DNA of 62,137 nucleotides from Pseudonocardiales bacterium. Its GTDB lineage: Bacteria; Actinomycetota; Actinomycetes; Mycobacteriales; Pseudonocardiaceae. Both the position numbers and the translations under genes were made by a program. The stretch covers positions 1 through 62,137 of the forward strand of contig JAFAWY010000021.1 in NCBI GenBank assembly GCA_019241525.1, written 5' to 3'. Shown piece after piece: positions 19,265 to 52,961 of the stretch. The notes beneath the pieces are model-generated. The model saw only the letters and a program-made list of their open reading frames with translations. It was not told where the DNA came from and made no database searches. Positions within the stretch are counted from its first letter, which is position 1. Each line of letters begins with the position of its first letter.

Positions 19265-19330
19265 GCGTGTCGCGCTCTCCCCCCGGGCGCGTCGCGCTCT
19301 CGCGGCCGGTGTGTCGTGCTCCGGTACACA
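19265..19330 (+). repeat. 22-base phased array downstream of accA3
   Basis: Three units begin at exactly 19265, 19287 and 19309. Each starts with the core GYGYGTCGYGCTC (GCGTGTCGCGCTC, GCGCGTCGCGCTC, GTGTGTCGTGCTC). The first begins seven bases after the accA3 stop and all read in the accA3 sense. No hairpin terminator is visible in this stretch. Confidence 0.9.
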
Positions 19331-19349
19331 GTTGCTCTCGGCCCCATGC

Positions 19350-19437
19350 TGCGCATGAGCGCGCGACACACCATGCACGAGCGGGCGACACACCAGACGT
19401 CAGCGCGCGACACGCGCGGCAGGAAAGCACGACACGC
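19350..19437 (-). repeat. 22-base phased array downstream of glpD
   Basis: Four units on the minus strand, with right ends at 19437, 19415, 19393 and 19371, spaced 22 bases. They read GCGTGTCG or GTGTGTCG in the glpD sense, starting 26 bases after its stop. With 19265-19330 they form two opposed arrays around a short centre, so inter-array pairing is possible. Confidence 0.9.
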
Positions 19438-19463
19438 CGAGCGCAGAAGGTCCAAACGGGAGA

Positions 19464-21212
19464 TCAGCTGACTGCGGCGAGCAGTTGCGGGCGTGGGTCA
19501 GGCGCAGCGGCGCGGCGGGCATCAGCGGTGGAATCGTCAGGCTCCCGTTGCGACTCGCGCTCGGCGGCCACCCGAGCGAGGTAGAGCTGCACCTCCCGGT
19601 CCCGCACCGCACCGGTCCAGTTCAGCACCTCGCCCATCAGGCCGGCTGCCTCGGCAGCGCAGGCCTCACCCCGGTGCGCGTATTCGATCGAGATCCGGGT
19701 ACGCCGGGTCAACACGTCTTCCAGGTGCAAGGCTCCCTCGTGGCTGGCCGCGTGCACCACCTCGACACGGAGGTAATCCGGCGCCTCCAGCAAGGGCGAC
19801 AGCAGATCCGGACGGTCGGCGGCCAACGCGAGGACCTGGTGCACCGCTGAGCCGTAGCGGTCCAGCAAGTGCCGTAGCCGGTAGGGGTGCAACCCGTACC
19901 GAGCGGCTAGCGAGTCGGCCTGATTCACCAGCGCGTAATAACCGTCCGCGCCGAGAAGCGGCACCTTGTCGGTGATGGAGCGCGCGACCCGACCCGGCAG
20001 ATCCGGCACAGCCGCGTCCACCGCATCGGCAGCCATTACCCGGTAAGTGGTGTACTTCCCGCCCGCGATGGCGACAAGGCCCGGGGCCACCCGCGCGACG
20101 GCGTGCTCTCGGGACAGTCGCGACGTCTCCTCACTTTCGCCGGCCAGCAGGGGCCGTAAGCCCGCGTAAACGCCCTCGATGTCGCCATCGTTGAGCGGGG
20201 TGACCAGCACCGAGTTGACGGTGTCCAGCAGGTAGTCGATGTCCGCGCGAGTGGCCGCAGGGTGCGCCAGGTCGAGGTTCCACTGAGTGTCGGTGGTGCC
20301 GATGATCCAATGGTTACGCCACGGGATGACAAACAACACCGACGTCGCCGTGCGCAGGATCAATCCGCTCTCCGACACGATGCGGTCCCGGGGGACCACG
20401 ATATGCACGCCCTTGGAAGGGCGGATCCGGAACCGCCCCCGCCCACCGGACAACCGCTGGATCTCATCGGTCCACACGCCAGTGCAGTTGAGCACCACGT
20501 GCGCATCGACGTCGGTCTCCGCACCAGTCTCGCAATCCCGCACGCGGACTCCGGAGATCCGATCCGCCTCCCGTCGGAAGCCGATGACCTGGGTGGAGCT
20601 GCGTACCACCGCGCCGTAATGGGCGGCTGTCCGGGCCACCGTCATCGTGTGCCGAGCATCGTCGGTGATCGCGTCGTAGTAGTGCACCCCGCCGACGAGT
20701 TGGTGTCGGCGCAACGCCGGCGCCAAGCGCAACGCTCCCGCTCGCGTGAGATGGCGCTGACCGGGCACTGATCGTGCACCGCCCAACGTGTCGTACAGCG
20801 CCAGCCCGGCGGCTACATAGGGCCGCTCCCAGATCCGGTGCGCCAGCGGGTACAAAAAGCTCACCGGCTTGACCAGGTGCGGCGCCAGCCGGGTGAGCAT
20901 CAACTCGCGTTCATGCAACGCCTCGCGAACCAGACCGAACTCCAGCTGCTCCAAATAGCGCAGGCCACCATGGAAGAGCTTGGATGACCTGCTGGACGTG
21001 CCGGAAGCGATGTCCCGCGCTTCCACCAAAGCCACCGTGAGACCGCGGGTGGCAGCGTCCAAGGCCGCACCGCAACCCACCACACCTGCACCGATGACGA
21101 CAACGTCGAACTGCTCACCGGCCAACCGCTGCCAATCCGCCACTCGTTGCGCCGGACACAACTGGCCGGGGACGGACTCCAAAGGCTGCAGCTCACGCTT
21201 GGCCTGCCGCAC
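19464..21212 (-). CDS. glpD: Glycerol-3-phosphate dehydrogenase, GlpD
   Basis: FAD-dependent membrane-associated enzyme oxidising glycerol-3-phosphate to dihydroxyacetone phosphate. 582 residues, the normal size. The dinucleotide fold GAGVVGCGAALDAATRG (41-57) is followed by SGTSSRSSKLFHGGLRYLEQ, RPSKGVHIVVPRD, and VAIAGGKYTTYRVMA, all GlpD signatures. It works with GlpK encoded 1.3 kb upstream on the other strand. The start is a GTG at 21212; overlapping palindromes lie just upstream at 21224-21245. The gene ends beside a 22-base repeat array. Confidence 0.95.
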   Translation of the reverse strand: MRQAKRELQPLESVPGQLCPAQRVADWQRLAGEQFDVVVIGAGVVGCGAALDAATRGLTVALVEARDIASGTSSRSSKLFHGGLRYLEQLEFGLVREALHERELMLTRLAPHLVKPVSFLYPLAHRIWERPYVAAGLALYDTLGGARSVPGQRHLTRAGALRLAPALRRHQLVGGVHYYDAITDDARHTMTVARTAAHYGAVVRSSTQVIGFRREADRISGVRVRDCETGAETDVDAHVVLNCTGVWTDEIQRLSGGRGRFRIRPSKGVHIVVPRDRIVSESGLILRTATSVLFVIPWRNHWIIGTTDTQWNLDLAHPAATRADIDYLLDTVNSVLVTPLNDGDIEGVYAGLRPLLAGESEETSRLSREHAVARVAPGLVAIAGGKYTTYRVMAADAVDAAVPDLPGRVARSITDKVPLLGADGYYALVNQADSLAARYGLHPYRLRHLLDRYGSAVHQVLALAADRPDLLSPLLEAPDYLRVEVVHAASHEGALHLEDVLTRRTRISIEYAHRGEACAAEAAGLMGEVLNWTGAVRDREVQLYLARVAAERESQREPDDSTADARRAAAPDPRPQLLAAVS

Positions 21213-21223
21213 CGGTCATACCC

Positions 21224-21245
21224 CCTACGTCGTAGGCGATCGCCT
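21224..21245. promoter_or_regulatory. Two overlapping palindromes before glpD
   Basis: CCTACG-T-CGTAGG (21224-21236) overlaps the perfect 12-base palindrome AGGCGATCGCCT (21234-21245), 12-33 bases before the glpD GTG and inside the gap to the MFS gene. This is the place expected for a regulator of glycerol use, or a terminator for the MFS gene upstream. Confidence 0.4.
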
Positions 21246-21253
21246 GCTGCACG

Positions 21254-22504
21254 CTACCGCGGTTGGTCCCCCCCGTGGTGGCACGAACGCCGGCCGAAGC
21301 TGGGGTGGTGGGCCCGTTTGAGGAGTAGCAGCACGGTCACGGCGAGTATCGCGATGAGTGCAGCGAAGACCATGCCGGACACGGTGAGACCGAAGGCCAC
21401 AGCAGCGGCACCTTCGCCGATCACTGGAATCGCGATCCCTACGTAAAGCATCACGAAATAGGTCGACGTGATCTCGCCGCGCTTGTCCGGTGGGCTTGCG
21501 CTAGCCACCGCGCCGAGGCCGGCGCGGAAACTCATACCCTGGCCAAGTCCGGCAATGACCGCTCCGACGATAAGTACCGCCAGGGACCGGACAAGCAGGC
21601 TGGTTCCCACGAGGATCATCCCCACGATCAAACCGACACACCCGAGGGTCAAGGCGCGCCGCTCGCCGATGGCCATGGACAGCGACTGGCCGAGTGTCGA
21701 GGCAAGGAAGACCGAAAGCACCACCGCACCGGTCACCGCGTGGTTGGTGTTCTGCAGCACCGTGGTGAGAAACGCCGGCGACACCGCGGTGAACAGTCCC
21801 ATGACGGCGAAACCGGCGAAGCCAGCGATCGCGGCTCTTGTGAACACGCCTCGGATCTCGGAGGGCACAGTGATCTTCTGAGGTGCTAGCCGGATGGCGG
21901 CGGTCCGCCGCACTGGTTCGGCGACGACGTAGACCCCCAGGACGGCCAGCGCAACAAGAACGAGATCAAAGAGGAAGCACAGAGCCAGCGGCAGCGGTGC
22001 GTATTGCGCCAGGACACCGGCCAGCAGCGGTCCGGCACCGAGACCGCCCATGTTGACTGCCGCCGCGATCAGGCTCGCCCGTGACTTGCCCTCGTCTGGA
22101 ACCAGATCCACGATCGTGGCGGTCGCGGTCCCGGTGAATATTCCCGCCGACAAGCCCGAGAGCACCCGGCCGACGAACAGCCAACCAAGTGAATCCGCCA
22201 GCAGGAACACGACGGCAGAAAAACCGGACAACACCAGTCCTGCCAGCAGCATCGGTCGCCGACCCAACTGGTCTGACCAGTGCCCGAACAGCAACAAAGC
22301 AGCGATGACACCGACCGCGTATGCTGCGAACACCACCGTGGTGATCAGCTCGCTGAAGCCGAAAGCCTTCTCGTAGAGCGGATATAACGGCGTCGGCAAC
22401 GTGGTGCCCAGCATGGTGATTGCGAATGCGGCGGCGATAAGTGTTACCGAAGCCCGGCCCCGCAATGCCCGTTCGGGCACACGCTGGAGCAGTCGGAGGT
22501 CCAT
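21254..22504 (-). CDS. MFS transporter between glpD and glpK
   Basis: A 416-residue, 12-helix major facilitator. The first inter-helix motif is GHWSDQLGRRPML (the MFS A motif G-x-x-x-D-x-x-G-R-R), followed by GRVLSGLSAGIFTGT and a second-half loop DKRGEITSTYF. Helices alternate evenly along the sequence and there is a basic C-terminus. Substrate cannot be read from it; the sequence looks like drug/sugar exporters of the same clan. It is co-directional with glpD 41 bases ahead and divergent from glpK, the place where a glycerol facilitator often lies, so a role in glycerol or phosphoglycerol transport is possible but unproven. Confidence 0.85.
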   Translation of the reverse strand: MDLRLLQRVPERALRGRASVTLIAAAFAITMLGTTLPTPLYPLYEKAFGFSELITTVVFAAYAVGVIAALLLFGHWSDQLGRRPMLLAGLVLSGFSAVVFLLADSLGWLFVGRVLSGLSAGIFTGTATATIVDLVPDEGKSRASLIAAAVNMGGLGAGPLLAGVLAQYAPLPLALCFLFDLVLVALAVLGVYVVAEPVRRTAAIRLAPQKITVPSEIRGVFTRAAIAGFAGFAVMGLFTAVSPAFLTTVLQNTNHAVTGAVVLSVFLASTLGQSLSMAIGERRALTLGCVGLIVGMILVGTSLLVRSLAVLIVGAVIAGLGQGMSFRAGLGAVASASPPDKRGEITSTYFVMLYVGIAIPVIGEGAAAVAFGLTVSGMVFAALIAILAVTVLLLLKRAHHPSFGRRSCHHGGDQPR

Positions 22505-22570
22505 GGCTTAACTACTGCCCCTTTGTCCTGATCGGCAACCCAAGTGCGGGGACGCTAGCGTCTAACCGCA

Positions 22571-24064
22571 ATGAACCAGTACGTCGCCGCAATCGACCAG
22601 GGCACCACCTCTACCCGCTGCATGATATTCGATCATGCTGGCCAGGTGGTCAGCGCCGACCAGCGCGAGCACCAGCAGCACTTCCCCGCCGCCGGCTGGG
22701 TAGAGCACGACCCACTGGAGATTTGGGCGAATACCCAGCAGGTCACGTCCGGGGCGCTGGCCGCGGCAAACTTGACAGCGAGTGACATTGCGGCAGTCGG
22801 GATCGCCAACCAGCGGGAGACGGTTGTGGTGTGGGACCGGCACAGCGGCGAGCCGGTGTATAACGCGATCGTCTGGCAAGACACCCGCACCGACCGGTTG
22901 TGCACGGAACTGGGCGGCTCGACGGGCGCGCTGCGGTATCAGGCTCGTACCGGCTTGCCGTTGTCCACGTACTTCTCCGGCCCCAAGGTCCGGTGGATCC
23001 TCGACCACGTCGATGGTGCCCGGCAACGAGCGCGCCGTGGTGAGCTCTGCTTCGGGACCATCGATGCCTGGCTGGTGTGGAACATGACCGGTGGGTTGCA
23101 TGTCACCGATGTCACCAATGCCTCGCGCACCCTCCTGATGGACCTGCATCAACTGTGTTGGGACAGCGACATTGCCGAGGAGATGGGCGTTCCGGTGTCC
23201 ATGCTGGGGAGCATCTACCCGTCATCTCAGGTGTATGGCTCGGTGCATGAACCGGCAACACTGGCCGGGGTGCCGATCGGCGGCATTCTCGGTGACCAGC
23301 AAGCTGCGACGTTCGGGCAGGCGTGTCTGTCCGTCGGAGAGGCGAAGAACACTTACGGCACCGGCAACTTCATGCTGCTCAACACCGGGACCAAACCGGT
23401 GCCCAGCCGCCACGGCCTGCTGACCACGGTCTGCTACCAAGTCGGGACGCAGGATCCGGTGTACGCGCTGGAAGGCTCCATTGCCGTCACGGGAGCGCTG
23501 GTGCAGTGGTTACGCGACAACCTGGGCATGATCTCCTCATCCGATGAGATCGAGCAGCTAGCCGCTTCCGTTGAGGACAGCGGTGGCGCTTACTTCGTGC
23601 CCGCCTTCTCGGGGCTGTTCGCCCCGCATTGGCGATCTGACGCTCGGGGCGCCATCGTCGGCCTGACGCGTTACGTCAACCGTGGGCACCTGGCCCGAGC
23701 GGTGCTGGAAGCTACCGCGTTCCAAACCCGAGAGGTTCTCGACGCGATGAACGCTGACTCGGGGACCGAGTTGGCTGTTCTGAAGGTAGACGGCGGGATG
23801 GTGCGTAACGATCTGCTGATGCAGTTTCAGGCCGATATCTTGGGTGTCCCGGTGATCCGCCCCGCGGTCAGGGAGACGACCGCGCTGGGCGCTGCTTACG
23901 CTGCCGGCCTAGCCGTGGCAGCGTGGTCCGGTGAGGAGGAAATCCGACATAACTGGTCAGCCGACCGGCGGTGGGATCCTCAGATGGATCCGCCGCAGCG
24001 AGAACACCTCTACGCTCAGTGGCGCAAGGCGGTCATCCGGACACTTGACTGGGTTGACGACTGA
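22571..24064 (+). CDS. glpK: Glycerol kinase, GlpK
   Basis: Phosphorylates glycerol to glycerol-3-phosphate, feeding GlpD. 497 residues, full length for the family: [16 protein letters not shown] at the phosphate loop, [52 protein letters not shown] and a late [18 protein letters not shown]. The ATG at 22571 has TAGCGT nine bases upstream. Its 66-base divergent promoter region with the MFS gene would let one regulator control both. The last 32 bases overlap the 3' end of the convergent small membrane-protein gene. Confidence 0.96.
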
Positions 24065-24278
24065 CCGCCCGGCGCCGATTGAGTACCAGCGCCACCCCTG
24101 AGCCAGCGGTGGCGATCGCGCCGCCCACGGTAAGCGACACAGCAAGCACGCTCACCTCGGTTTGCGGCGCAGCTTGGCTATCCGCGTTCGCAGTGCTGAT
24201 CAGTCCATCGGCCATGGCCACGGGAACTGGGCCTAGTAGAGCCGCACCAGCGATCAGCCCGCAGGTAACGATCCACAT
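24033..24278 (-). CDS. Small secreted or membrane protein, unknown
   Basis: An 81-residue protein I do not recognise. It starts at ATG 24278 after a strong GAGGAGG ribosome site. Residues 1-22 look like a signal peptide with possible cleavage in VAMA-DG; a short polar segment follows, then a second helix [20 protein letters not shown] and a positively charged tail (NRRRAVSRQ). It would be a one-helix protein with its C-terminus inside the cell. Its 3' end overlaps glpK by 32 bases. The good ribosome site and clean topology argue it is real. Confidence 0.65.
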
Positions 24279-24425
24279 CGCAACCTCCTCATGCCAGCCC
24301 TCTACCCACAAGGACGCGCGGGCACGCATGAGGTTGCGCGATGGCGAGCACTCTCAGTGCGCACTCTGTATTCAAGGCGTAGCCGACGGTGGTGGCGGGA
24401 ACGTGGGGACATCTCATGTGGCAGC

Positions 24426-24431
24426 TACGCT
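24426..24431 (+). promoter_or_regulatory. -10 box, leaderless cyclotransferase gene
   Basis: TACGCT, then seven bases, then GTG. No ribosome site is visible, which fits a leaderless start. Confidence 0.45.
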
Positions 24432-24438
24432 ATCGCGC

Positions 24439-24891
24439 GTGCCGCTCTACGCCGCCTACGGGTCGAACATGGATCCCGCCCAAATGGCGCAACGCGCGCC
24501 GCACTCGCCGATGGCGATGACCGGCTGGTTGATCGGGTGGCGGTTGACCTTCGGTGGCGAAGACCTGCTTTGGGAAGGGGCGCTGGCCACCGTTGTCGAA
24601 GACCCCGAGTCCCAGGTGTTCGTCGTGATCTATGACGTGACCCCGGAGGACGAAAAACTGCTCGATCGCTGGGAGGGTGGGGATTTCGGGCTGCACAAGA
24701 AGCTGAAGCTGCGGGTACACACCCTGGACGGCTCGGCGCTTGCCTGGCTCTACGTGCTCGACGCCTATGAGGGCGGATTGCCCTCGGCGCGCTATCTCGG
24801 CGTGATCGCTGACGCCGCCGAGGCGGCCGGTGCTCCCGAGGACTACGTCGCCGAACTGCGCGCCCGTCCCTGCTCCGGCATCGGCCCCTGA
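24439..24891 (+). CDS. Gamma-glutamylcyclotransferase-like protein
   Basis: A 150-residue AIG2/GGCT-fold protein: the opening LYAAYGSNMDPAQMAQRAP is the family's substrate loop, and the middle VIYDVTPEDEKLLDRWEGG carries the conserved acidic residue. Members cyclise gamma-glutamyl compounds or hydrolyse related amides. The GTG at 24439 has TACGCT seven bases upstream, so the message is probably leaderless. Thirty bases after the stop a five-unit 22-base array begins, in the same sense. Confidence 0.8.
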   Translation: MPLYAAYGSNMDPAQMAQRAPHSPMAMTGWLIGWRLTFGGEDLLWEGALATVVEDPESQVFVVIYDVTPEDEKLLDRWEGGDFGLHKKLKLRVHTLDGSALAWLYVLDAYEGGLPSARYLGVIADAAEAAGAPEDYVAELRARPCSGIGP

Positions 24892-24920
24892 CCGTTGCTC
24901 CATCGCCCCCTCTCGGCCCG

Positions 24921-25030
24921 GCGTGTCGTGCCCTCCTGCCCGGTGTGTCGTGCGCTGGTGCCCGGTGTGTCGTGCCCTCCTGCCCGGTGTGTCGTGCGCT
25001 GGTGCCCGGTGTATCTTGCGCTCAGGCGCG
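24921..25030 (+). repeat. 22-base phased array, five units, downstream of cyclotransferase gene
   Basis: Units start at 24921, 24943, 24965, 24987 and 25009, always 22 bases apart. Units 2 and 4 are identical, and units 1 and 3 differ by one base, so a 44-base pair has been duplicated. Core GTGTGTCGTGC, then CCTCCTGCCCG or GCTGGTGCCCG. The last unit is degenerate and runs over the stop codon of the convergent nuclease gene. Confidence 0.92.
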
Positions 25031-25963
25031 TCGTCTGCCTGGGCGTTGCTCCCCAGGTACGGCTCGGTAGTGGCCCGCTCCCCTGATCTCGAAGGCGTCC
25101 TCGAGCCTGGCCAGCAGCCCGCTGGGTTCAGCTAGGTCGGCCGCGGTGGCTCTGACTGTGATCCATCCGCGCCGTTCTAGGTCAAGATCGCGGCGACCAT
25201 CGCGGTCCAGCCGGTACTCGTGCGACTCGTAACCGTCGTACTCCAGCGCTATGCGCAACTCGGGCCAGCACAGATCCAGGACATACCGAACGCAGCCCAG
25301 CGCATCGAGAACCTGGAACTGCTCCGCCGGGGTCGGAAAACCCGCGTCGACCACGAGCAGCTTCAACCAGCTCTCCGGCGGTGACTCGGGCCGCCCGGTG
25401 ACTAGAGGAAGCAACGTACCCGCCCGGGCGGTACCGCGACGGTCAGCCCGGGTGGCCAGCCGATCAGCGATCCGCCGGCAAAACGCCGACCGTTCTCCCT
25501 CGCTGAGCTGTGCAGATGCTTGATCTGCAACAGCCAGCGCCCGCCGGGCCACATCCGTGCACAGTAATTCGGTAACCGCCACGGCAAGCGTGACGGTGCG
25601 CAACTTGCGCACCTCGATCACGTCATTCAGTAGCCCGCGCCCCTGGTGAACAACCAGGCCTTCCTGAGTTCGCAGAGAACTCGAATAGGGCACCGCCACA
25701 TGAACGGCAGGCGTGGCCGCTGCTGGACAACCTTGCAGCCAGGCCGCGGTGAGACCAGTCAACGCTGCCTGGGATCCAGCCACAAGCAGCGCTGCAGCTG
25801 CTCGGGTGTCTGGATCCAGCAGCGAGTCCATCGGGACGAGTACTCCCCAGATTTGCCGGATCCGGCCGTCAGCCCGCAGTCGGTCCAGGCTGCGCCGACC
25901 GATGGCATCACGTAGCTGTGCGTAGGTCCATGGGCCGTGACAGTCTTCGGGGAGGCTGAGCAT
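25022..25963 (-). CDS. DUF559 (Vsr-like) nuclease with N-terminal winged helix
   Basis: A 313-residue protein. The first 70 residues resemble the AbiEi-type winged helix (YAQLRDAIGRRSLDRLRADG, then a transcription-factor-like wing RQIWGVLVPMDSL). The last third has a PD-(D/E)xK nuclease pattern of the DUF559/Vsr clan: CVRYVLDLCWPELRIALEYDG with Asp and Glu-x-Asp, and a later DGRRDLDLERRGWITVRAT. Such genes are abundant in actinobacteria and uncharacterised. No antitoxin or toxin partner lies beside it. It is bracketed by two 22-base arrays that face each other. The start at 25963 is a guess; the frame upstream is repeat-derived. Confidence 0.7.
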   Translation of the reverse strand: MLSLPEDCHGPWTYAQLRDAIGRRSLDRLRADGRIRQIWGVLVPMDSLLDPDTRAAAALLVAGSQAALTGLTAAWLQGCPAAATPAVHVAVPYSSSLRTQEGLVVHQGRGLLNDVIEVRKLRTVTLAVAVTELLCTDVARRALAVADQASAQLSEGERSAFCRRIADRLATRADRRGTARAGTLLPLVTGRPESPPESWLKLLVVDAGFPTPAEQFQVLDALGCVRYVLDLCWPELRIALEYDGYESHEYRLDRDGRRDLDLERRGWITVRATAADLAEPSGLLARLEDAFEIRGAGHYRAVPGEQRPGRRRA

Positions 25964-26080
25964 GGCATGAGCTTTGCTGGGTCGGTCCAATCGATGCGAG
26001 CGCCGGATCCGGCAGCTGTGGATGAGCAGGCCCGTTGTGGACAAGCCCAGCAGAGAGATCAGGACAGCGTGATCTCGCGG

Positions 26081-26168
26081 TGTGCCGTGGTGCGCAACAC
26101 GCGGAGCGGGAAGGCGCGACACACCGTGCAGGGGAGCGCGACACGCGAGCCACGAGGGCACGACACGC
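26081..26168 (-). repeat. 22-base phased array downstream of the M20 amidohydrolase gene
   Basis: Four minus-strand units with right ends at 26168, 26146, 26124 and 26102, 22 bases apart. They start 11 bases after the amidohydrolase stop and read in its sense. The farthest unit is degenerate (GTGTTGCGC). Confidence 0.9.
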
Positions 26169-26179
26169 GCGGGAAGGGG

Positions 26180-27406
26180 TCAGGTTAGGGCGGCTAGTGC
26201 GGTGTGCACCATGACGCGCACGCCAAGCGGGAGCGCGCGCTCATCGAGATCGAAGGTGGGTTGATGGATGTCGTGCTGCGGCTGGTCGCCGGACCAGACA
26301 CCGAGGCGGCACATGGATCCCGGCACGTGCTCGAGGTACCAGGCGAAATCCTCCGCACCAGCGGACTGCTCAGTACTTACGACAGCGTCCTCGCCCAACG
26401 CGGCGGCGATACCGTCGCGGAGCAGCCCGGTGCTGACCGGCTCGTTGACCACCGGCGGCACGCCACGGACATGGCGCAGGTCAAAGCCCACGCCGGTGGG
26501 CGTGAGCAGGGCGGTGACCAGCTCGCGGACCAGTGGTTCCAGATCTGTCCAGATACCGCGGTCCCCAGTGCGGAGGGTGCCGCGAACCAACCCTTCTTGA
26601 GGAACGGTGTTGGCGGCCTGACCTGCCTGCACCGCCCCCCACACCAGGAGCGTGCCTGAGCGGGGATCGATCCGCCGGGACAGCAGCGAGGGCAATCCGG
26701 TGATTACGGTGCCGAGCGCGTGCACCAGATCGGCGGTGAGGTGCGGCCGCGAGGTATGCCCGCCGGGTGAGGACAGCCGCAGTTCCAGCAGGTCGGAAGC
26801 CGACGTCATCGGCCCAACCCGGGTACCGACCTGACCAACGGGTAACCGGGGGGCGCAATGCAGCGCGAAGATATGGTCCACATCGGACAAGGCACCTGCG
26901 GCGAGCACATCCAGCGCTCCGCCAGGCATCACTTCCTCAGCCGGTTGGAAGATCAGCCGGATCTGACCCGGCAACGCCGGAGCTGACGCTAACGCCAACG
27001 CAGCACCCAGCAGGATGGCGGTGTGCGCGTCATGCCCGCAGGCGTGCATGACGCCGTGCACGGTGGAAGCGAACGGCAACCCGGTGGCTTCCACCAACGG
27101 CAGTGCGTCGATGTCGGCCCGCAGCGCGACACACCGGGAACCGGTACCGATGTCGCAGATCAGCCCGGTGCCGTCGGGCAGCGGGGTGGATTGCAAGCCA
27201 GCACTGCGGAGGCACTCGGCAATCAGAGCCGTGGTGGCGTGTTCGGCGTAGGCGAGCTCTGGATGGGCATGGATGTGCCGACGCCAGGCGACCAGGTCGG
27301 TACCGTGTTTCGACAGCCACTCGTCGAGCCAGGACGGCCCCCGACCCGCCGCGATGTCCAGCGGCGCCTCAGCGGCAGGCAGTGGGCTGGGGTGTAGCAG
27401 CGTCAC
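26180..27406 (-). CDS. M20 amidohydrolase (AmiA-like)
   Basis: Metal-dependent N-acyl amino-acid or peptide amidohydrolase of 408 residues. Motifs: RRHIHAHPELAYAE, ALRADIDALPLVE, HACGHDAHTAILLGAA (metal Cys/His), IFQPAEEVMPGGA, and a late EQSAGAEDFAWYLE. The order amiA beside deoD-type genes recalls Rv3305c-Rv3307. The GTG start overlaps the stop of the preceding hypothetical gene, so they are coupled. A 22-base repeat array follows the stop. The substrate is unknown. Confidence 0.9.
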   Translation of the reverse strand: MTLLHPSPLPAAEAPLDIAAGRGPSWLDEWLSKHGTDLVAWRRHIHAHPELAYAEHATTALIAECLRSAGLQSTPLPDGTGLICDIGTGSRCVALRADIDALPLVEATGLPFASTVHGVMHACGHDAHTAILLGAALALASAPALPGQIRLIFQPAEEVMPGGALDVLAAGALSDVDHIFALHCAPRLPVGQVGTRVGPMTSASDLLELRLSSPGGHTSRPHLTADLVHALGTVITGLPSLLSRRIDPRSGTLLVWGAVQAGQAANTVPQEGLVRGTLRTGDRGIWTDLEPLVRELVTALLTPTGVGFDLRHVRGVPPVVNEPVSTGLLRDGIAAALGEDAVVSTEQSAGAEDFAWYLEHVPGSMCRLGVWSGDQPQHDIHQPTFDLDERALPLGVRVMVHTALAALT

Positions 27407-27876
27407 GCGCCACCTCCGGCGTCGCCGGTGGCCGCCGCCAGACCGGTCAGTGTCAGCGCACGGGCGCCGTTGCTGCACACGGCGGTCGCGTCAGCCCGCG
27501 GGTCATACCACGCTGACGTGTTAGCGGCGGTCATCACGTCGTCGAATACCCCTCTCTGCGCGCGCGGTATCTTGCCCGTACCGGCATCTTCGGCGGATTT
27601 TCCGATCAACTTGATCGTCACGTCCAGAGTTTCGGTGGCCGCCGCGATGACGTTGCGCCAGCACTCGTGATCCACCTTCGACAGCACCACATAGTCCAGG
27701 CGCAGGCCGGAATGCAGAGGCGACACGCCGTGCTCGACATCGAAGCGATCGGCCGCCACCAGAACGGCGCCGTTACCAGCACCGACGTGCTCCGTGTCGG
27801 CACTGCGCCGCAGTGCTCGCAGAGCGTCCCCAGGCCGCGCCATGGCGACAGCAGGACTGGCTGCCGCAGGATTCAT
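27403..27876 (-). CDS. Uncharacterised protein coupled to the amidohydrolase
   Basis: A 157-residue protein I do not recognise. No signal peptide or membrane helix is visible. The N-terminal 20 residues are Ala/Pro rich; the core runs ADTEHVGAGNGAVLVAADRF through VVLSKVDHECWRNVIAAA to KIPRAQRGVFDDVMTAANT, with a Gly/Ala-rich end. The start is placed at ATG 27876, since the longer frame would overlap the divergent ATP-grasp gene. The stop overlaps the amidohydrolase start, so the pair are probably made together and may act together. Confidence 0.55.
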   Translation of the reverse strand: MNPAAASPAVAMARPGDALRALRRSADTEHVGAGNGAVLVAADRFDVEHGVSPLHSGLRLDYVVLSKVDHECWRNVIAAATETLDVTIKLIGKSAEDAGTGKIPRAQRGVFDDVMTAANTSAWYDPRADATAVCSNGARALTLTGLAAATGDAGGGA

Positions 27877-28044
27877 CCCCTGATTCTGCCCGACACAGCT
27901 CACCGACGCCGCATGCCGTGCCGCAGCCAGCGCAGTCGATTGCCCTACGGCCGCCACGGCCACGACCGGTGCTGTCCAGTCAATCTCAAACGACCACGGT
28001 GTTGAACTCGGCAACAAGATGGCGCGGTTCACCGGCCAGGCAAG

Positions 28045-28050
28045 TAGCGT
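28045..28050 (+). promoter_or_regulatory. -10 box, ATP-grasp gene
   Basis: TAGCGT seven bases before the GTG at 28058; it decides the start used here. Confidence 0.45.
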
Positions 28051-28057
28051 CAATCCT

Positions 28058-30531: not shown

Positions 30532-30576
30532 GCCCACTTCGCATACCCGCTGAGCGGGTGCGGGCATCATGGGGCC

Positions 30577-32279: not shown

Positions 32280-32286
32280 ACTCAGC

Positions 32287-41083: not shown

Positions 41084-41089
41084 TAGCGT
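41084..41089 (+). promoter_or_regulatory. -10 box, cinA
   Basis: TAGCGT eight bases before the GTG at 41098; fixes the cinA start nine codons after the longest possible one. Confidence 0.5.
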
Positions 41090-41097
41090 GGCGTCTC

Positions 41098-42381: not shown

Positions 42382-42400
42382 GTGCTCGCCCGATCAAGTG

Positions 42401-42589: not shown

Positions 42590-42745
42590 GGCGGTCTCCT
42601 AGCACTGTCGGGGGCCAGTGGACGGATCGAAGGAGGTGACCCGTTGGCCCCAGTAAACACCTGTCCGGCACCGGACATATCGGGGAAAACCCTGGCTCGG
42701 GATGCTCGGCCGACGGCGCTTAGGTGTCCATGTGGCGTTGCCGGT

Positions 42746-43675: not shown

Positions 43676-43705
43676 GCCCTGTCAGGCTAGTCGGCGTGGG
43701 CGGAT

Positions 43706-45077
<1,372 letters not shown>

Positions 45078-45114
45078 CCGATCACTTCCTGTCTAGGTTG
45101 TGATCATCTTATTG

Positions 45115-46335: not shown

Positions 46336-46501
46336 CGGCCGGGCGCTCCTTCCGACTTACGCCGTGATACTGCCAGCCTATGCTTCCCTACGCCGCCGAG
46401 TTGTTCCGGCGGCACGCGGTCACGCAGACGCAATCCCGGCGTTACCGTGCAGTACCAAACCCACTCAACGAGGCGCTGTCGCCCGGCTAACGTAGTCCGG
46501 C

Positions 46502-47287: not shown

Positions 47288-48083
47288 GCGCCTGGCTGTC
47301 TACCGCGACCTGATCAGGGCCTCGGTCCGCAGTCAGCTGGCCTACCCGACCTCGTTCGCGTTGCAGTGCGCCGGGCAGGCGGTGGTGCAGTTGGAGGACA
47401 TGGTGGTCATCCTGGTGCTGTTCTCCCGGCTCGGGGACATGGGCGGGTTCACCCGGCATGAGGTATTGCTGATCTTCAGCCTCGCCGGGGTATCGTTCGG
47501 GCTGGCTGACCTGCTGGTCGGCTCGGTGGACAAGATCGGCGAACTGGTCCGCACCGGGACGCTTGATGCGCTGCTGCTGCGCCCGGTGCCTGCCATGGTG
47601 CAGATCTGTACTTCCGAGTTCGCGCTGCGCCGGCTCGGCAAGGTAGCCACTGCGCTGGCCGTACTCGGCTACGTGCTGGCCACCGCGCACATCTCGTGGA
47701 CGCCGCTGCGGGTGGCGGTGCTGCTGATCACCCCGGTGACCGGGCTGGTGTTGTTTGGCGCGATCTGGGTGGCGGCCACGGCGACCATCTTCTGGTTGGT
47801 AGAAGGGCAGGAACTGCCCAATGCGGTGACTTACGGCTCCAGCCTGTTCACCTCTTACCCGGTGTCTGTGTTCTCCGGGTGGCTACTGCGGTTGATGGCC
47901 TTTGTGGTGCCGGGCGCATTCGTCGCCTACTACCCGGCGCTGGCAATCCTCGGCAAGCCGGACCCGCTCGGGCTGCCCGCGGTGTTGCCTTACAGCGCCC
48001 CGGTGGTGGCGGTAGTGGCCAGCGGTGTCGCAGCGTTGGCCTGGCGAGCGGGGCTTCGCCACTACGTTGGCACGGGGTCGTGA
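47280..48083 (+). CDS. ABC-2 type permease, second subunit
   Basis: A 267-residue partner permease of the same family: YRDLIRASVRSQLAYPTSFA in the first membrane region, FSRLGDMGGFTRHEVLLIFS, and a last conserved piece PGAFVAYYPALAILGK. It overlaps the first permease and abuts the ATPase gene (stop TGA, then ATG), so the three proteins should be made in equal amounts and form one heterodimeric exporter. Confidence 0.85.
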   Translation: MGERLAVYRDLIRASVRSQLAYPTSFALQCAGQAVVQLEDMVVILVLFSRLGDMGGFTRHEVLLIFSLAGVSFGLADLLVGSVDKIGELVRTGTLDALLLRPVPAMVQICTSEFALRRLGKVATALAVLGYVLATAHISWTPLRVAVLLITPVTGLVLFGAIWVAATATIFWLVEGQELPNAVTYGSSLFTSYPVSVFSGWLLRLMAFVVPGAFVAYYPALAILGKPDPLGLPAVLPYSAPVVAVVASGVAALAWRAGLRHYVGTGS

Positions 48084-49022
48084 ATGGCGCCACTGATCGA
48101 ACTCGACGGGCTGCGGCGAGAATTCCGGCGCCAGCGCGGCATCCGGCTGGCCGCAGTTGACGGGCTCACGCTGACCGTGGCGGCTGGCGAGGCGGTCGGC
48201 CTGCTCGGACCTAATGGAGCGGGCAAGTCGACGACGATCAAGATGCTGACCGGGATCCTGGTGCCCACGGCGGGGCGGGTGCGGGTCTGCGGGCTAGACC
48301 CGGTGCGGCATCGCCGGGAACTGGCCCGGCGGATCGGCGTGGTGTTCGGGCAGCGCAGCCAGCTGTGGTGGGACCTGCCGTTGGCGGAAAGCTTCGCGCT
48401 GTTGCGCACGATCCACCGGGTGGCTGCCTCGGCCCATGCCCGGCGGCTTGCGGAGTGCGTCGACCTGCTGGAGCTGGCGCCGTTTCTAGCCACTCCGGTG
48501 CGGCAGCTGTCACTGGGTCAGCGGATGCGTGGTGAGGTCACCGCGGCACTGCTGCACTCGCCGCAGCTGCTGGTGCTCGACGAGCCGACGGTAGGGCTTG
48601 ACCTGATCAGCAAGGAGCGGCTGCGGACGTTTTTGGCCCGAACCAATGCCGTCGACGGGGTCACCCTGCTGCTGACCACGCATGACCTGCCAGATGTCGA
48701 ACGGCTGTGCCGGCGGCTGGTGGTCATCGACCATGGCCGGGTGCTGGTAGATGGTTCGCTGGCTGAGCTGCGCCGCCGCTTCGGCGGTGCGCGCCGGCTG
48801 GTGGTGGATCTCGTGCAGCCCACCGAAGCACTGGATGGGCTGCCCGGCGTCCTGCACGTCACGGTGGAGGCGGGCGGGCTGCGTCAGCGGCTGGCATTCT
48901 CTGCTGCGGACACCAGCGCCGCGGAGCTCATCTCTGCAGTCGTGGCCCGAGCCGCCGTGCGCGACCTGTTCGTCCTCGAACCCTCCATCGAAGACGTCAT
49001 CCGCACCCTCTACACCACCTAA
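48084..49022 (+). CDS. ABC transporter ATPase for the ABC-2 exporter
   Basis: A 312-residue ATPase: Walker [20 protein letters not shown] loop [16 protein letters not shown] (with the Trp pair of the DUF990 set), signature [16 protein letters not shown] (a variant of LSGGQ with Leu), Walker [13 protein letters not shown], switch [10 protein letters not shown]. The C-terminal 70 residues form the extra domain typical of drug exporters. It is the last gene of the unit, followed three bases later by a very strong hairpin. Confidence 0.92.
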
Positions 49023-49024
49023 TG

Positions 49025-49066
49025 CCCCCAAAACAGCAGTCTGGATGCAGACTGCTGTTTTGGGGG
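49025..49066. terminator. Perfect 19-bp hairpin, bidirectional terminator
   Basis: Arms 49025-49043 and 49048-49066 pair without a mismatch around the loop GATG; from the tip outward the stem has CAGACTGCTG, four T, five G. An A-run and T-run are present for both directions, so it can end the exporter operon (stop 49022) and mdh (stop at 49117). The inner 20 bases are the family B palindrome. Confidence 0.85.
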
Positions 49067-49077
49067 GCGTGTTAACA

Positions 49078-49097
49078 GCAGTCTGCATCCAGACTGC
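49078..49097. repeat. Second family B palindrome, opposite orientation
   Basis: GCAGTCTG-CATC-CAGACTGC, identical to the copy at 3445-3464 and inverted relative to 49035-49056. The loops GATG and CATC of the two hairpins are complementary, and longer pairing between the two copies is also possible. Confidence 0.85.
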
Positions 49098-49116
49098 GCT
49101 TTTGAAGGGTGCGGAG

Positions 49117-50073
49117 CTAGAGGTGCTGGATGTCGGCTTGTTTGGCGCGGACGGCTTCAGCGGCTTTGTGCAGCTCGGCCAGCTCGGTGTCGGCGAGCGG
49201 GATCTCGATCACGCGGCGCACGCCGTCGCGGCCCAGCTCCGCGGTGACGCCAAGGTACACACCGGAAATGCCGAACTCCCCGTCCACCCACGCGCAGATC
49301 GGCTGCACCGCACCGGAATCGGTGTAGACCTCGCGCACCATGCGGGCTGCCGCAGCCGACGGGGCGTAGTACGCCGATCCGGTCTTGAGTAGCGCGACGA
49401 CCTCGGCTCCACCGTTGCGGGTGCGGGTGATCAGCTCATCGATCTTTTCGGCAGGGAGCAACTCGGTCAGCGGCTTGCCGTCCACCGTGCAGGCACTGGG
49501 CACCGGGACCATGGTGTCGCCGTGCGAGCCCAGCGTCAGGGTGCGTACCGACGACACCGGGACGGCAAGTTCGTCGGCGACGAAGTTGGTGAACCGCGCG
49601 GTGTCGAGCATCCCCGCCTGACCCATCACCCGGTGCCGGGGGAAACCGGTGGCCAGCTGTGCCAGCGCGGTCATCTCGTCCAGCGGGTTAGATACGACGA
49701 TCACCACGGCGTCCGGCGCGTGCCGGGCGACGTTCTCTGCGACCTGCCGGACGATGCGCGCGTTCACCTCGAGCAGATCCATGCGGCTCATGCCAGGCTT
49801 ACGAGGCAGTCCCGCGGTGATCACCACGATGTCGCTACCGGCGATCGCCTCGTATCCGGAGCCGTCGCGACCGGTGGTCATCCCGACGACCTTGGTTTCG
49901 AAGCCCTCCACTGGCCGGGACTGGTTGATGTCCAGCGCCAGGCCTTCTGGCCTGCCCTCGATGATGTCGGTGAGTACGACGGCGTCGAACAGGTCGTACT
50001 CGGCCAGCCGCTGCGCGGTGGTGGAACCGTAGAACCCGGCGCCGATGACCGCGACCTTGCCCGAACGTGCCAT
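49117..50073 (-). CDS. mdh: Malate dehydrogenase (LDH-like)
   Basis: NAD-dependent enzyme of the lactate/malate family, 318 residues. Seen: VAVIGAGFYGSTTAQRLAEY (nucleotide loop), ITAGLPRKPGMSRMDLLEVN (first Arg pair), VSNPLDEMTALAQLATG, GQAGMLDTARF, and LGSHGDTMVPVPS (catalytic His). The RKPGMSR loop with Arg-Lys-Pro-Gly-Met is the malate type, so Mdh rather than Ldh. With icd nearby it adds to a TCA set. It is separated from the exporter by the hairpins. Confidence 0.93.
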   Translation of the reverse strand: MARSGKVAVIGAGFYGSTTAQRLAEYDLFDAVVLTDIIEGRPEGLALDINQSRPVEGFETKVVGMTTGRDGSGYEAIAGSDIVVITAGLPRKPGMSRMDLLEVNARIVRQVAENVARHAPDAVVIVVSNPLDEMTALAQLATGFPRHRVMGQAGMLDTARFTNFVADELAVPVSSVRTLTLGSHGDTMVPVPSACTVDGKPLTELLPAEKIDELITRTRNGGAEVVALLKTGSAYYAPSAAAARMVREVYTDSGAVQPICAWVDGEFGISGVYLGVTAELGRDGVRRVIEIPLADTELAELHKAAEAVRAKQADIQHL

Positions 50074-50095
50074 GGGGCGAGGCTATCTCCGCTCG

Positions 50096-50386
50096 TTAGT
50101 TGGCAGCCAGCGGTCCCCCGGTGATGGTCAGCGCCACGGCCAGCATCAACAACCCGAACCCGGCGTAGGTGAAAACGTCGAGGGTCCGGCGGCGGACGCC
50201 GAGCAGCCCCATACGTTCGGGTGGCAGTACGGCGCGCAACCCGGCGGCCAGGAGCAACGCACCACCGATGATCACGGTGCCCTCCCGCCAGTGATACTGG
50301 GCGATACGCACCATGCCCACCGCCACCACGGCCAGGATCAGACCGAAGGTCAGCTGGGGCCGCGGGCTCGTCCGCTGGGTGGTCAT
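50096..50386 (-). CDS. DUF3017 membrane protein
   Basis: A 96-residue three-helix membrane protein: [25 protein letters not shown] then [18 protein letters not shown], the recognisable [16 protein letters not shown], and a last helix. Matches DUF3017 (Rv3355c in mycobacteria), which always follows folD. The start overlaps the folD stop by four bases (ATGA), so the two are coupled. Its function is unknown. Confidence 0.85.
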
Positions 50387-51237
50387 GCCCGACCGGCTCG
50401 CTCGGCAGCCTCGACAACGTTGGCCAGCAACATGGCCCTGGTCATCGGCCCAACTCCACCGGGAACCGGCGCCAGGTACCCGGCGATCTTGGCCACCGCC
50501 GGGTCGACGTCCCCGGTCAGCCCGGCGTCGGTGCGGGTGATCCCCACATCGACGACGGCAGCGCCCGGTTTGACCATGTCAGCGGTGATCAATCCGGGCC
50601 GCCCGGCTGCGGCGACCACGATGTCGGCGCGGGAAACCTCAGCGGCCAGGTCGCGGGTGCCGGTGTGACACTGGGTGATTGTTGCGTTCTCACTGCGCCG
50701 GGTGAGCAGCAAAGCCAGGGTGCGTCCGACGGTGATACCGCGTCCCACGATCGTCACCTCAGCGCCGGCGATCGGCACGTCGAAGTGGCGAAGCAATTCC
50801 ACGATCCCGCGCGGAGTGCAGGGCAGCGGCCCCGGCTCGCCGAGCACCAGCCGGCCCAGGTTCATCGGATGCAGGCCGTCGGCATCCTTGGCCGGGTCCA
50901 TCCGTTCCAGTGTCGCGCCGGTGTCGAGGCCTGGCGGCAGCGGGAGCTGCACGATGTAGCCGGTGCAGGTGGGATCGGCGTTCAGCTCGTCGATCACCGC
51001 GAAGAGCTGGTCTTGGGTGGTCGTCGCGGGCAGCTCGCGGCGGATCGAGGCGATGCCGACTGCAGCGCAGTCGCGGTGCTTACCGCGTACGTAAGCGTGC
51101 GAGCCGGGATCGTCGCCGACGATGACGGTGCCCAGCCCGGGTGTCACTCCAGCGCTGCGGAGTGCTGCCACCCGGGTCTTGAGATCAGTGAAGATCTGTT
51201 CCCTGGTCGCTTTGCCGTCTAGCACGATCGCATTCAC
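50383..51237 (-). CDS. folD: Methylenetetrahydrofolate dehydrogenase/cyclohydrolase, FolD
   Basis: Bifunctional one-carbon enzyme. Motifs: [18 protein letters not shown] (substrate Tyr; the usual catalytic Lys of the K-x-K site is in RGKHRDC), [51 protein letters not shown] and a late [14 protein letters not shown]. 284 residues from the GTG at 51237, which begins [11 protein letters not shown] like other FolD and lies a normal distance after AAAGGA; an ATG nine bases earlier is also possible. Same order as Rv3356c-Rv3355c. Confidence 0.94.
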
Positions 51238-51254
51238 GACACGCATCCTTTCAC

Positions 51255-52235
51255 TCAAGTTCGCGCTCGACGACGGGGCAGCGCGATCACCATGACCGAC
51301 ACGAGGGTCAGGGCGGTGCCGGTGATGGTGGTGATGGTGACCGGGCTCGGACCGGCGGGCAGGAGTAAATCGAGCAGTAACCCTCCGACGAGTTGCCCGG
51401 CCACCGCGCCGACTGCCAGCAGGAGCACACCGGTGATGCGGACGATGGCCGCCGAAATGCCGACGGCCAGCACGCCCAAGGGGCCACCGACGTACAACCA
51501 TGGCGTTGCGGGTATCGGCAGTGGCCACCCTCCACGCACCTTGATCTCCACCACCGCGGCTACGGCCAGCGCGGCGGTTCCCATGCCGAAGTTGACCAGT
51601 GCGGCCGCCATTACTCCCGCGCGGGCCGGACCACCGCGCTGCGCGGTCGCCGCGACCAGCCCGTTCACCGCCTGCTGCCAGGCCGTACCGGCTCCCGCGA
51701 GCACGGGCAGCAGCGCGAACCACGCGCTGAGCGCAGCGCCGATCCGGTGTGACACAGCTAGCGCCACGGCCATCAATGCCAATCCGGCACCGGTGACCCG
51801 CCGCCCGGTGACCGGCTGGACACCGCCGGGCCCGGTGCCTGCCCTGTCCACCAGCAGTGAGCTGACCGTCTGCCCGGCCACGACCGCGACGGTGAACACC
51901 GCCACCCCGATCGTCGCCACGGTCAACGCTTGGCACACGACCAGGAAGGCGCCACACACACCTCCGAGCAGCTGGTGGCGGGGCAATGTGTGATCCAGGA
52001 CGGCGGCCCGCACCCGGCCCAGCCCCTGCCGTACCCTTGGCCACACCGTAGCCAGCGCGACCAGCAACAACAGCCCGCCCAGGTTGGATAACGCGGCTGC
52101 GACCACAGCATCGTCGATGCGCTGGCCGAGCTCGCCGTTGATCCGGGCCTGAACGGCAACCGCGACCCCGATTCCGAGTGCGGCTGCGGTGGCAGCCACC
52201 CGGGCACCCTCGGTCGATGCAGGGGCGCTCGTCAC
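51255..52235 (-). CDS. DMT-type transporter (DUF606/YdcZ family)
   Basis: A 326-residue membrane protein with ten helices in two similar halves; the halves begin [20 protein letters not shown] and [15 protein letters not shown], each with the Q-x-x-x-N-G signature of YdcZ/DUF606 transporters. Function is unknown; relatives may transport small metabolites or drugs. The start overlaps the mfpA stop by four bases, so it is transcribed with mfpA, with folD a few bases on. Confidence 0.85.
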
Positions 52236-52846
52236 CGCCCTAGGTCGACCCGCAGGCCGTGTGCTGCGGCGAAGCGGATGGCGGTGTCGACGTCGATCCG
52301 GGCACCGGACAGCTGCGCGGCCACCAGAGCGTCAGCGTCTAACCGGGCACCGCGCAGGTCAGCGTCGTCCAGGCGAGCGTGGTGCAGCCGGGCTCCGGTG
52401 AGATCGACTCCGGACAGGTCAGCGCCACGCAGATCCGCCCGCACCAGGTTCGCCTCGGCCAGCCTGAGCCCGGCGAGTTCCGTCTCCCGCAGATCAGCCT
52501 GACCCAGGGCGGTAAGCCGCAGGTCGACCTCGTGCAGGGTCCACGGCCGCAGCCGGCACTCGCTGATCGTGCTGCCCAGCAGGGAACAGTGGTGCAGCTG
52601 CGAGCCAGCCCACATAGTGCGCTGGAAGGTGCAGGTGTGAAAGGCGGTCCCCCGGTGTTGCGAGTCACCGAGATCGGAGCGGCTGAAGTCGCAATTGGTG
52701 AACCGGCAATTACGGGTGCGCAGTCCTCGTAAATCAGCGTCGGTGAACCGACAGGCGATGAAGCAGCGGCCCACCCACTCCTGATCGGCGAACACTGCAT
52801 CGGTGAAGTCAGCGTCGTTGACGGTCTCGTTGTCAGTCATGGGCAC
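52232..52846 (-). CDS. mfpA: Pentapeptide-repeat protein, MfpA-like
   Basis: Right-handed beta-helix protein that mimics DNA and binds gyrase; the mycobacterial form protects against fluoroquinolones. The 204 residues show the A(D/N)Lxx repeats ([28 protein letters not shown] in pieces) and near the middle the specific stretch [17 protein letters not shown] and [11 protein letters not shown] that match MfpA, ending [13 protein letters not shown]. In mycobacteria mfpA follows a conservon of small GTPase-related genes; those are absent here. It lies between dnaE2 and a DMT transporter gene, separated from dnaE2 by a 22-base array. Confidence 0.9.
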
Positions 52847-52895
52847 GTCTTCACCTTCTCAGTACAGCCCGACAACGGGTGGGACGCCGTCCCGA

Positions 52896-52961
52896 CGAGC
52901 GCAGGTACGCGACATATCGGGCACAGGGGCGCGACACGCGGGGCACCGGAGCACGACACGC
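52896..52961 (-). repeat. 22-base phased array downstream of dnaE2
   Basis: Three minus-strand units with right ends at 52961, 52939 and 52917. The first two start GCGTGTCG; the third is degenerate (ATATGTCG). The first begins five bases after the dnaE2 stop, in the dnaE2 sense. Confidence 0.88.

What the first reader, a model, noticed from the sequence alone, without database searches (positions are those of the whole stretch)
19265..52961. A 22-base phased motif marks the 3' ends of five genes, always in the sense of the gene
Five arrays (19265-19330, 19350-19437, 24921-25030, 26081-26168, 52896-52961) contain 19 units in all. The spacing between unit starts is 22 bases in every case I checked. 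The core is GYGTGTCGYGC. Each array lies just downstream of a stop codon (5 to 30 bases) of accA3, glpD, the cyclotransferase, the M20 amidohydrolase or dnaE2, and reads in that gene's sense, whichever strand. Twenty-two bases is close to two helical turns, so a DNA-binding protein could sit on one face; 22 is not a multiple of 3, so it is not coding. No simple hairpin lies in these stretches. A roadblock or RNA-binding termination or stability system is my inference. I have seen similar repeats in related actinobacterial genomes but know no published function.
Basis: partly seen in the sequence, partly recalled or inferred. Interest (0 to 1): 0.88.

Follow-up and report, generated by a model that had tools for sequence, protein, structure and literature searches.

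The report
Helix-phased repeats at gene ends
Some actinobacteria mark the ends of certain genes with a short DNA word repeated every two turns of the double helix, pointing the way the gene is read; this looks like a landing strip for an unknown protein that may stop transcription without the usual RNA hairpin.

Summary
The window holds five arrays, 19 units, every spacing 22 bp, 7-31 nt past a stop codon in the sense of the gene. In the whole genome the strict dimer occurs 44 times, the reversed-pattern control 0 times. Of 45 classifiable arrays 37 have a sense gene on the 5' side (median 15 nt); 8 do not, so 'always sense' holds in the window, not in the genome.

The class recurs in Pseudonocardiaceae: core GWGTCGNGC, period 22 bp (21 in one genus), 5 or more dimers in 38 of 390 family genomes; no clear excess over control in 318 other genomes of the order. 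The arrays form no RNA fold and match no Rfam family. Between two species the core is conserved while the linker drifts. In G000 neighbouring units are no more alike than units of different arrays, yet spacing stays fixed.

Best reading, inferred: an unidentified protein binds DNA every two helical turns at transcript ends. Termination is untested. Against simple hairpin replacement: at 19 orthologous ends in an array-free congener only 3 fold strongly, and 11 have under 20 nt of gap.

The parts
19267..19319 (+). array of 3 units, spacing 22, 8 nt after accA3 stop
19361..19435 (-). array of 4 units, spacing 22, 28 nt after glpD stop; faces the array at 19267
24923..25019 (+). array of 5 units, spacing 22, 31 nt after the cyclotransferase stop; the orthologous site of G009 reads as a C-rich leader and one unit
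26092..26166 (-). array of 4 units, spacing 22, 13 nt after the M20 peptidase stop; orthologous array in G009
52907..52959 (-). array of 3 units, spacing 22, 7 nt after the DNA polymerase III alpha (dnaE2) stop
19259..19266 (+). spacer between stop and array (over the sense arrays together such spacers are C 54%, G 23%, against 34% and 31% after other stops)
24892..24922 (+). C-rich spacer between stop and array
26167..26179 (-). C-rich spacer between stop and array
17156..19258 (+). gene in front of array 1: biotin carboxylase / biotin carrier protein (accA3-like)
19464..21212 (-). gene in front of array 2: glycerol-3-phosphate dehydrogenase (glpD)
24079..24891 (+). gene in front of array 3: gamma-glutamyl cyclotransferase (AIG2-like)
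26180..27406 (-). gene in front of array 4: peptidase M20 family
52967..55033 (-). gene in front of array 5: C-terminal ORF of a DNA polymerase III alpha homologue (dnaE2-like)

Best explanation
The arrays are tandem sites for a sequence-specific DNA-binding protein that has not been identified. Each unit offers the core GWGTCGNGC once every two turns of B-DNA (21-22 bp), so that 2 to 16 molecules (the unit numbers seen) stack on one face of the helix in a fixed polarity. Starting mostly 4-50 nt beyond a stop codon and pointing the way RNA polymerase travels, the filament acts as a polar roadblock or termination zone at the end of a transcription unit, doing without the usual hairpin. Shown here: the anatomy, the strand and position bias, conservation of the core between two species, the fixed spacing, the recurrence in eight genera.
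For: Position and polarity: 37 of 45 arrays in G000 and 31 of 39 in G009 (many sites shared, so not independent), 15 of 17 in genus g58, 17 of 22 in Amycolatopsis antarctica (G146), 12 of 13 in g21, 5 of 8 in G257, 23 of 31 in GAGTCG-type genomes have a sense gene on the 5' side. In G000 convergent gaps are over-used and divergent ones avoided: 18 and 3 against 7.0 and 10.6 expected from gap bases of the same fetched stretches (p 1e-5). Phasing: of 123 exact core pairs at any spacing of 11-40 in two genomes, 112 are at 22, 8 at 21, none at 20 or 23, 3 elsewhere (counted from the list). In G000 adjacent linkers are no more alike (0.51, n=102) than linkers of different arrays (0.55), so fixed spacing is not just recent copying. 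Genus g14 uses 21-bp units. Selection: in 25 aligned orthologous arrays of G000/G009 the core keeps 92.5% identity (positions 3-6: 98-100%), linker 75.6%, downstream intergenic 83.8%, coding end 89.7%. No RNA structure. Strong folds are fewer at array ends (2 of 36) than at ends of array-free G007 (40 of 150, p 0.007); against other G000 ends (13 of 72) the difference is not significant, p 0.14.
Against: No binding protein was found and no transcript ends were seen. Orthologous 3' ends in array-free G007 are not rich in hairpins (3 of 19 with z below -2), and in 11 of 19 the next called gene starts within 20 nt, so there the arrays occupy DNA that the congener lacks. Eight of 45 arrays lie upstream of gene starts, antisense to that gene. 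Outside g1 the orientation test in co-directional gaps is not significant in any one group (p 0.23 to 1). In g21 the 5' edge lies nearer a gene in only 4 of 13 arrays, and 8 of 13 have an inverted partner just upstream; in the 53 GAGTCG arrays convergent ones are nearer their own stop in 11 of 17 only. Only 46 arrays were found in a 4.7-Mb genome, and most genomes of the family lack them by these patterns. Units are gained and lost, so spacing is partly history; in G009 neighbours are more alike (0.65 against 0.56).
Confidence: 0.36

Rival explanations
1. The arrays work as RNA: in the 3' UTR the repeated GUGUCGYGC is bound by an RNA-binding protein, or forms a Rho loading and pausing zone after the C-rich leader, and so ends or stabilises the message.
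For: Sense placement after stop codons; C-rich, G-poor leader; no folding, so the RNA would be single-stranded. The consensus (G20, Y7, G8) partly resembles the elemental pause motif (motif recalled, not from a call).
Against: Strict 21-22 spacing with diverged linkers is not needed by RNA. The unit consensus of GAGTCG-type arrays of G357 holds more G than C, so a general rut site does not fit; position 7 is G in g58 and often G in A. antarctica, against the pause motif.
Confidence: 0.2
2. The arrays are a selfish or accreting repeat family whose spread, not host use, keeps the core: something copies or inserts units just outside coding regions, with the orientation set by the boundary.
For: Very patchy presence: 2 of 11 genomes of genus g1, 1 of 80 of genus g15, taken as Amycolatopsis. 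Unit number changes between orthologues. In 11 of 19 orthologous ends the array-free congener has under 20 nt of gap. Arrays mostly point away from the nearest coding end, also at some 5' ends (5' edge nearer a gene in 43 of 45 in G000).
Against: No Y1/RAYT transposase in G000, G009, G146, G246, G247, G122 or G123; G257 has 2 matches. The arrays do not fold. The core is conserved while linkers drift. Unit sequences differ too much for recent copying in G000.
Confidence: 0.24
3. The arrays are sites of a chromosome-organising or regulatory DNA-binding protein that has nothing to do with termination; 3' ends are simply where such sites are tolerated. WhiA was one candidate: its published motif GACAC is the reverse complement of GTGTC.
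For: Motif match with WhiA (PMC3781837, passages read). WhiA found once in 25 of 26 genomes searched (none found in G009). Fixed phasing suits any DNA-binding protein.
Against: WhiA's HTH does not track the arrays: identical in array-bearing G257 and array-free G251 and G254, identical in array-bearing G122, G123 and array-free G124, one residue apart in G000 and array-free G006. The GAGTCG-type core lacks GACAC. The strand rule is not expected from tolerance alone, and the paper reports no consistent motif direction for WhiA.
Confidence: 0.13
4. Ordinary repeats: hairpin terminators, REP/BIME elements or coding minisatellites.
For: Other genomes of the family do carry inverted repeats in the same kind of place, and G017 has 22-bp units in inverted order.
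Against: No fold above shuffles, no Rfam match, no RAYT in 7 of 8 GTGTCG-type genomes searched, 45 of 46 arrays outside called genes, 22 not a multiple of 3.
Confidence: 0.05

Closest known systems
TAACTGA direct repeats of marine Beggiatoaceae (MacGregor 2015, PMC4679880; outline, abstract and passages seen)
   Same: Short core in 2-6 direct copies, 169 sets in one genome, mostly one orientation relative to genes, patchy presence across lineages, binding protein unknown.
   Different: Those sit mostly just before start codons as 7-bp repeats; these follow stop codons with 21-22 bp units. The core, the taxa and the proposed role differ.
Intrinsic (hairpin) terminators, including the long inverted repeats seen here in G007 and G017
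   Same: Same place: just after stop codons and between convergent genes.
   Different: Direct repeats, no stem; the core is conserved as sequence, not as pairs.
Iterons of plasmid replication origins and SARP-type 11/22-bp direct repeats (recalled)
   Same: Direct repeats spaced by whole helical turns for a protein on one face.
   Different: They sit at origins or promoters; these sit at gene 3' ends, tens to hundreds per genome.
Polar roadblock terminators such as the TTF-I/Sal box and Reb1 (recalled)
   Same: Proposed mode of action: tandem polar protein sites behind genes that stop RNA polymerase.
   Different: Eukaryotic; no homologue is claimed; binding is untested here.
REP/BIME elements with RAYT transposases (recalled)
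   Same: Short interspersed intergenic repeats, often near 3' ends.
   Different: REPs are palindromic and tied to RAYT; here the arrays do not fold and there is no Y1 transposase in 7 of 8 GTGTCG-type array genomes searched.

Membership tests
Intrinsic hairpin terminator | stable stem-loop in the RNA of the element | tested here: not met
   46 arrays, mean z -0.25 sense, -0.12 antisense; the terminator scan of 18500-27500 found 3 sites, 3.5 expected, none at an array
Intrinsic hairpin terminator | position after stop codon, in the sense of the gene | tested here: met
   37 of 45 arrays, median 15 nt
Rho-dependent terminator (rut) | C-rich, G-poor unstructured RNA | tested here: inconclusive
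   spacer C 54%, G 23%; arrays C 38%, G 36%; unit consensus of G357 holds more G than C
Rho-dependent terminator (rut) | dependence on Rho | not testable with these tools
   needs transcripts with and without Rho
REP/BIME with RAYT | palindromic unit | tested here: not met
   no fold
REP/BIME with RAYT | Y1 transposase (PF01797) in the genome | tested here: not met
   0 matches in G000, G009, G146, G246, G247, G122, G123, and in G357 and G017; G257 has 2
WhiA binding sites | GACAC motif | tested here: inconclusive
   GTGTC is its reverse complement in GTGTCG-type arrays; absent from the core of GAGTCG-type arrays
WhiA binding sites | binding by WhiA | not testable with these tools
   needs footprint or ChIP; the HTH does not track array presence in the 25 genomes compared
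Known structured RNA | match to an Rfam family | tested here: not met
   0 matches in the window at gathering thresholds
Iteron-like protein array | direct repeats at whole helical turns | tested here: met
   112 of 123 pairs at 22, 8 at 21
Iteron-like protein array | bound by an initiator protein at a replication origin | not tested
   tens of sites spread over the genome make an origin role unlikely

The most novel reading that the evidence does not exclude
A new kind of bacterial transcription terminator: a polar nucleoprotein array on duplex DNA, phased at two helical turns, that ends transcripts without an RNA hairpin, with a dialect of the core for each lineage and a binding protein yet to be found.
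Probability: 0.28. Interest if true: 0.92.

Novelty: categorically new. Interest (0 to 1): 0.76.

Why it matters
High-GC actinobacteria often lack textbook terminators, and how they end transcripts is still partly open (recalled). A sequence-specific, hairpin-free 3'-end element that recurs in eight genera with the same core and phase gives that question a direct handle: the sites are listed, a genome matching a named strain, Amycolatopsis antarctica AU-G6, carries many arrays (235 dimers in G146), and array-free relatives serve as controls. If the arrays do not terminate, a polar, gene-oriented DNA repeat kept for another reason would be just as unexpected.

Tried and rejected
Hairpin terminator: rejected for single arrays. 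Known RNA family: none in Rfam. REP/RAYT: not supported. Coding repeat: 22 is not a multiple of 3, and 45 of 46 arrays lie outside called genes. A second WhiA copy or an array-specific WhiA HTH: not seen. Simple replacement of hairpins at orthologous ends: not supported, 3 of 19. Phage spread: 19 viral contigs hold one dimer each; I did not look into them and draw no conclusion.

Limits. Gene calls come from my own codon-usage script, not from a standard annotator. In one search the stretch of C15 gave no array, and the array at G000:C87:3509 was found only later and is not in the 46. In one search gene ends within 40 nt of any array were left out of the G000 control, and 150 of 183 G007 ends were drawn at random. 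One search translated 16 of 25 WhiA loci on the wrong strand; one search repeats it rightly and replaces it. One search used 41 of 150 for the G007 ends; the printed fractions give 40, and recomputes p (0.007). The GAGTCG tally uses 32 of 53 arrays: those from loci of array-rich genomes. A search for genes that co-occur with arrays was not possible with the searches left.

Literature: ten searches ran. None of the papers listed describes these repeats by title or abstract start; several lists were cut (40 of 329, 10 of 86, 12 of 20, 12 of 67, 10 of 185). The library holds only openly licensed papers, so an unseen description is possible.
Full report
What was claimed.

The observation. It is correct. 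A script that looks for GTGTCGYGC pairs at 21 or 22 bp finds exactly five arrays in the window, with 3, 4, 5, 4 and 3 units, all spaced 22, each behind a stop codon in the sense of that gene, at 8, 28, 31, 13 and 7 nt (sequences). The nine-base core occurs 16 times in the window against 4.2 expected. In the whole genome (4.72 Mb, 148 contigs) the exact dimer occurs 44 times; the same pattern read backwards, the control, occurs 0 times. A looser core gives 59 against 4.

Spacing. With any gap of 2-31 bases allowed, the exact cores of G000 and its relative G009 give 47 and 76 pairs. Counting the list: 112 of 123 are at 22, 8 at 21, none at 20 or 23, and 3 elsewhere (35, 39, 39). This could be mere duplication history. 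But in G000 the 13-base linkers of neighbouring units are no more alike (0.51, 102 pairs) than linkers of different arrays (0.55); in G009 they are somewhat more alike (0.65 against 0.56). So in G000 the linkers have drifted to background and the spacing has not. Genera differ: genus g14 uses mostly 21-bp units, the others 22. Both are two turns of B-DNA.

Position and strand. I fetched 34 stretches covering the loci hit outside the window and, with the window, found 46 arrays. One lies inside a gene call; 45 can be classed. The gene on the 5' side is sense in 37 (median distance 15 nt). In co-directional gaps, where orientation is free, 19 are sense and 5 antisense (p 0.0066). In convergent gaps, where any orientation is sense to one gene, 17 of 18 lie nearer their own gene's stop (p 1.4e-4). 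Convergent gaps are over-used and divergent ones avoided, 18 and 3 against 7.0 and 10.6 expected by gap bases; the background is the same array-centred stretches. The eight exceptions lie upstream of gene starts, five of them at 16-34 nt, one at 705 nt. A wider rule, that an array starts nearer a coding region than it ends, fits 43 of 45. Some exceptions are shared with G009.

Anatomy. The 22-base unit of G000 is GTGTCGYGCCCYSRTGCMCSGY (148 units, 144 counted). The spacer between stop and array is C-rich (C 54%, G 23%, 647 nt) compared with the 25 nt after other stops (C 34%, G 31%, 3114 nt). The arrays do not fold: mean z -0.25 in sense and -0.12 in antisense over 46 arrays. A G at position 16, one turn from the core, is the commonest base in 7 of 9 unit sets but not in those of G357 and G222/G230.

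Selection on the core. G009 shares many array sites: 25 of its arrays could be aligned with G000. Core identity is 92.5%, 98-100% at GTCG, against 75.6% for the linker, 83.8% for intergenic DNA downstream and 89.7% for the coding end upstream. The loci on both sides were picked for having arrays, so core conservation is somewhat inflated. Many length differences look like gain or loss of units, though the alignment cuts these gaps in varied ways.

How widespread. Within 390 genomes of the family (Pseudonocardiaceae by the named hits), GTGTCGNGC pairs at 21-22 bp reach 5 or more in G000 (58), G009 (82), G146 (235), G246 (19), G247 (9), G257 (10), G122 (6) and G123 (8); I set aside G282, whose 5 hits lie at one place. 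With GAGTCGNGC, 32 genomes reach 5 or more, chiefly genus g4 (24 genomes; G357: 109) and g14 (G297: 279). The union is 38 of 390, in eight genera, with controls of zero in those genomes for the pattern counted. These are hits, not places. G146 matches Amycolatopsis antarctica by array sequence; G257 and G122 match Actinocrispum wychmicini and Saccharothrix yanglingensis by array sequence and contig lengths, and G009 likewise a record titled Centralia_MAG_342. Presence is patchy: 2 of 11 in g1, 1 of 80 in g15. Outside the family, 318 genomes of the order show no clear excess over control with a looser pattern; the widest gap I saw was G469, 10 against 3.

Do the others obey the rule? Sense gene on the 5' side: G009 31 of 39, g58 15 of 17, A. 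antarctica 17 of 22, G257 5 of 8, g21 12 of 13, GAGTCG-rich genomes 23 of 31. Taken singly, none of the groups outside g1 reaches significance in co-directional gaps (p 0.23 to 1). Convergent arrays nearer their own stop: g58 8 of 9, A. antarctica 8 of 9, G257 3 of 3, but g21 2 of 8 and all GAGTCG arrays 11 of 17. In g21, 8 of 13 arrays have an antisense array just upstream, so the element is an inverted repeat there. G017 has a third dialect, also with 22-bp units, in inverted order.

Relation to hairpins. At gene ends followed by at least 60 nt of gap, a strong fold (z below -2) occurs at 2 of 36 array ends, 13 of 72 other ends of G000 and 40 of 150 ends of array-free G007 (p 0.14 and 0.007). 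This hints at arrays in place of hairpins. A direct test does not support it: of 70 query genes, 19 distinct orthologous ends were found in 1.18 Mb of G007, and 3 have a strong fold, among them the cyclotransferase and dnaE2 ends of this window. In 11 of the 19 the next called gene begins within 20 nt, so the arrays often occupy DNA that the congener lacks.

What could read the core. No RAYT-type transposase in 7 of 8 GTGTCG-type genomes and no Rfam family. WhiA was a lead: its motif GACAC is the reverse complement of GTGTC (PMC3781837, passages read). It was found once in 25 of 26 genomes, but its HTH does not track the arrays: identical in G257 (arrays) and G251, G254 (none), and in G122, G123 (arrays) and G124 (none). 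I could not search for a co-occurring gene.

Verdict. I favour a protein array on duplex DNA at transcript ends, with termination as the most likely use, at 0.36. RNA-level action, selfish spread, and a non-terminating DNA-binding role remain open. The nearest published parallel found is the TAACTGA repeats of Beggiatoaceae (PMC4679880; outline, abstract and passages seen), which sit mostly before start codons. Ten searches of an open-licence library, some with cut lists, listed no description of these arrays.

Noticed in passing
window 52967-56505 (-): Two overlapping ORFs (52967-55033 and 54877-56505) both match DNA polymerase III alpha, so the dnaE2-like gene is split here; a perfect 33-bp tandem duplication lies at 54680-54746.
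   Followed up: no
L191-L210 (G007, array-free congener): Convergent gaps hold several families of long inverted repeats that recur across loci (GTGAACTCGAC..., CGAACTCCACAG..., CATTCGGAGCCGAATG...).
   Followed up: partly
L241-L252 (G017): A third dialect of 22-bp units, GAGTYCCGCGCTGTGCACCGGT, laid out as inverted arrays; 30 of 30 dimers at the same spacing.
   Followed up: partly
L315-L325 (g21, Saccharothrix-like): Arrays mostly head-to-head: 8 of 13 have an antisense array directly upstream.
   Followed up: partly
window 25022-25699 (-): Small ORF after the cyclotransferase array with weak matches to DUF559 and an MTES_1575-type restriction-endonuclease fold.
   Followed up: no
L132 (Amycolatopsis antarctica) 1299-1549: Twelve units with identical linkers between two genes, a recent local expansion.
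   Followed up: no
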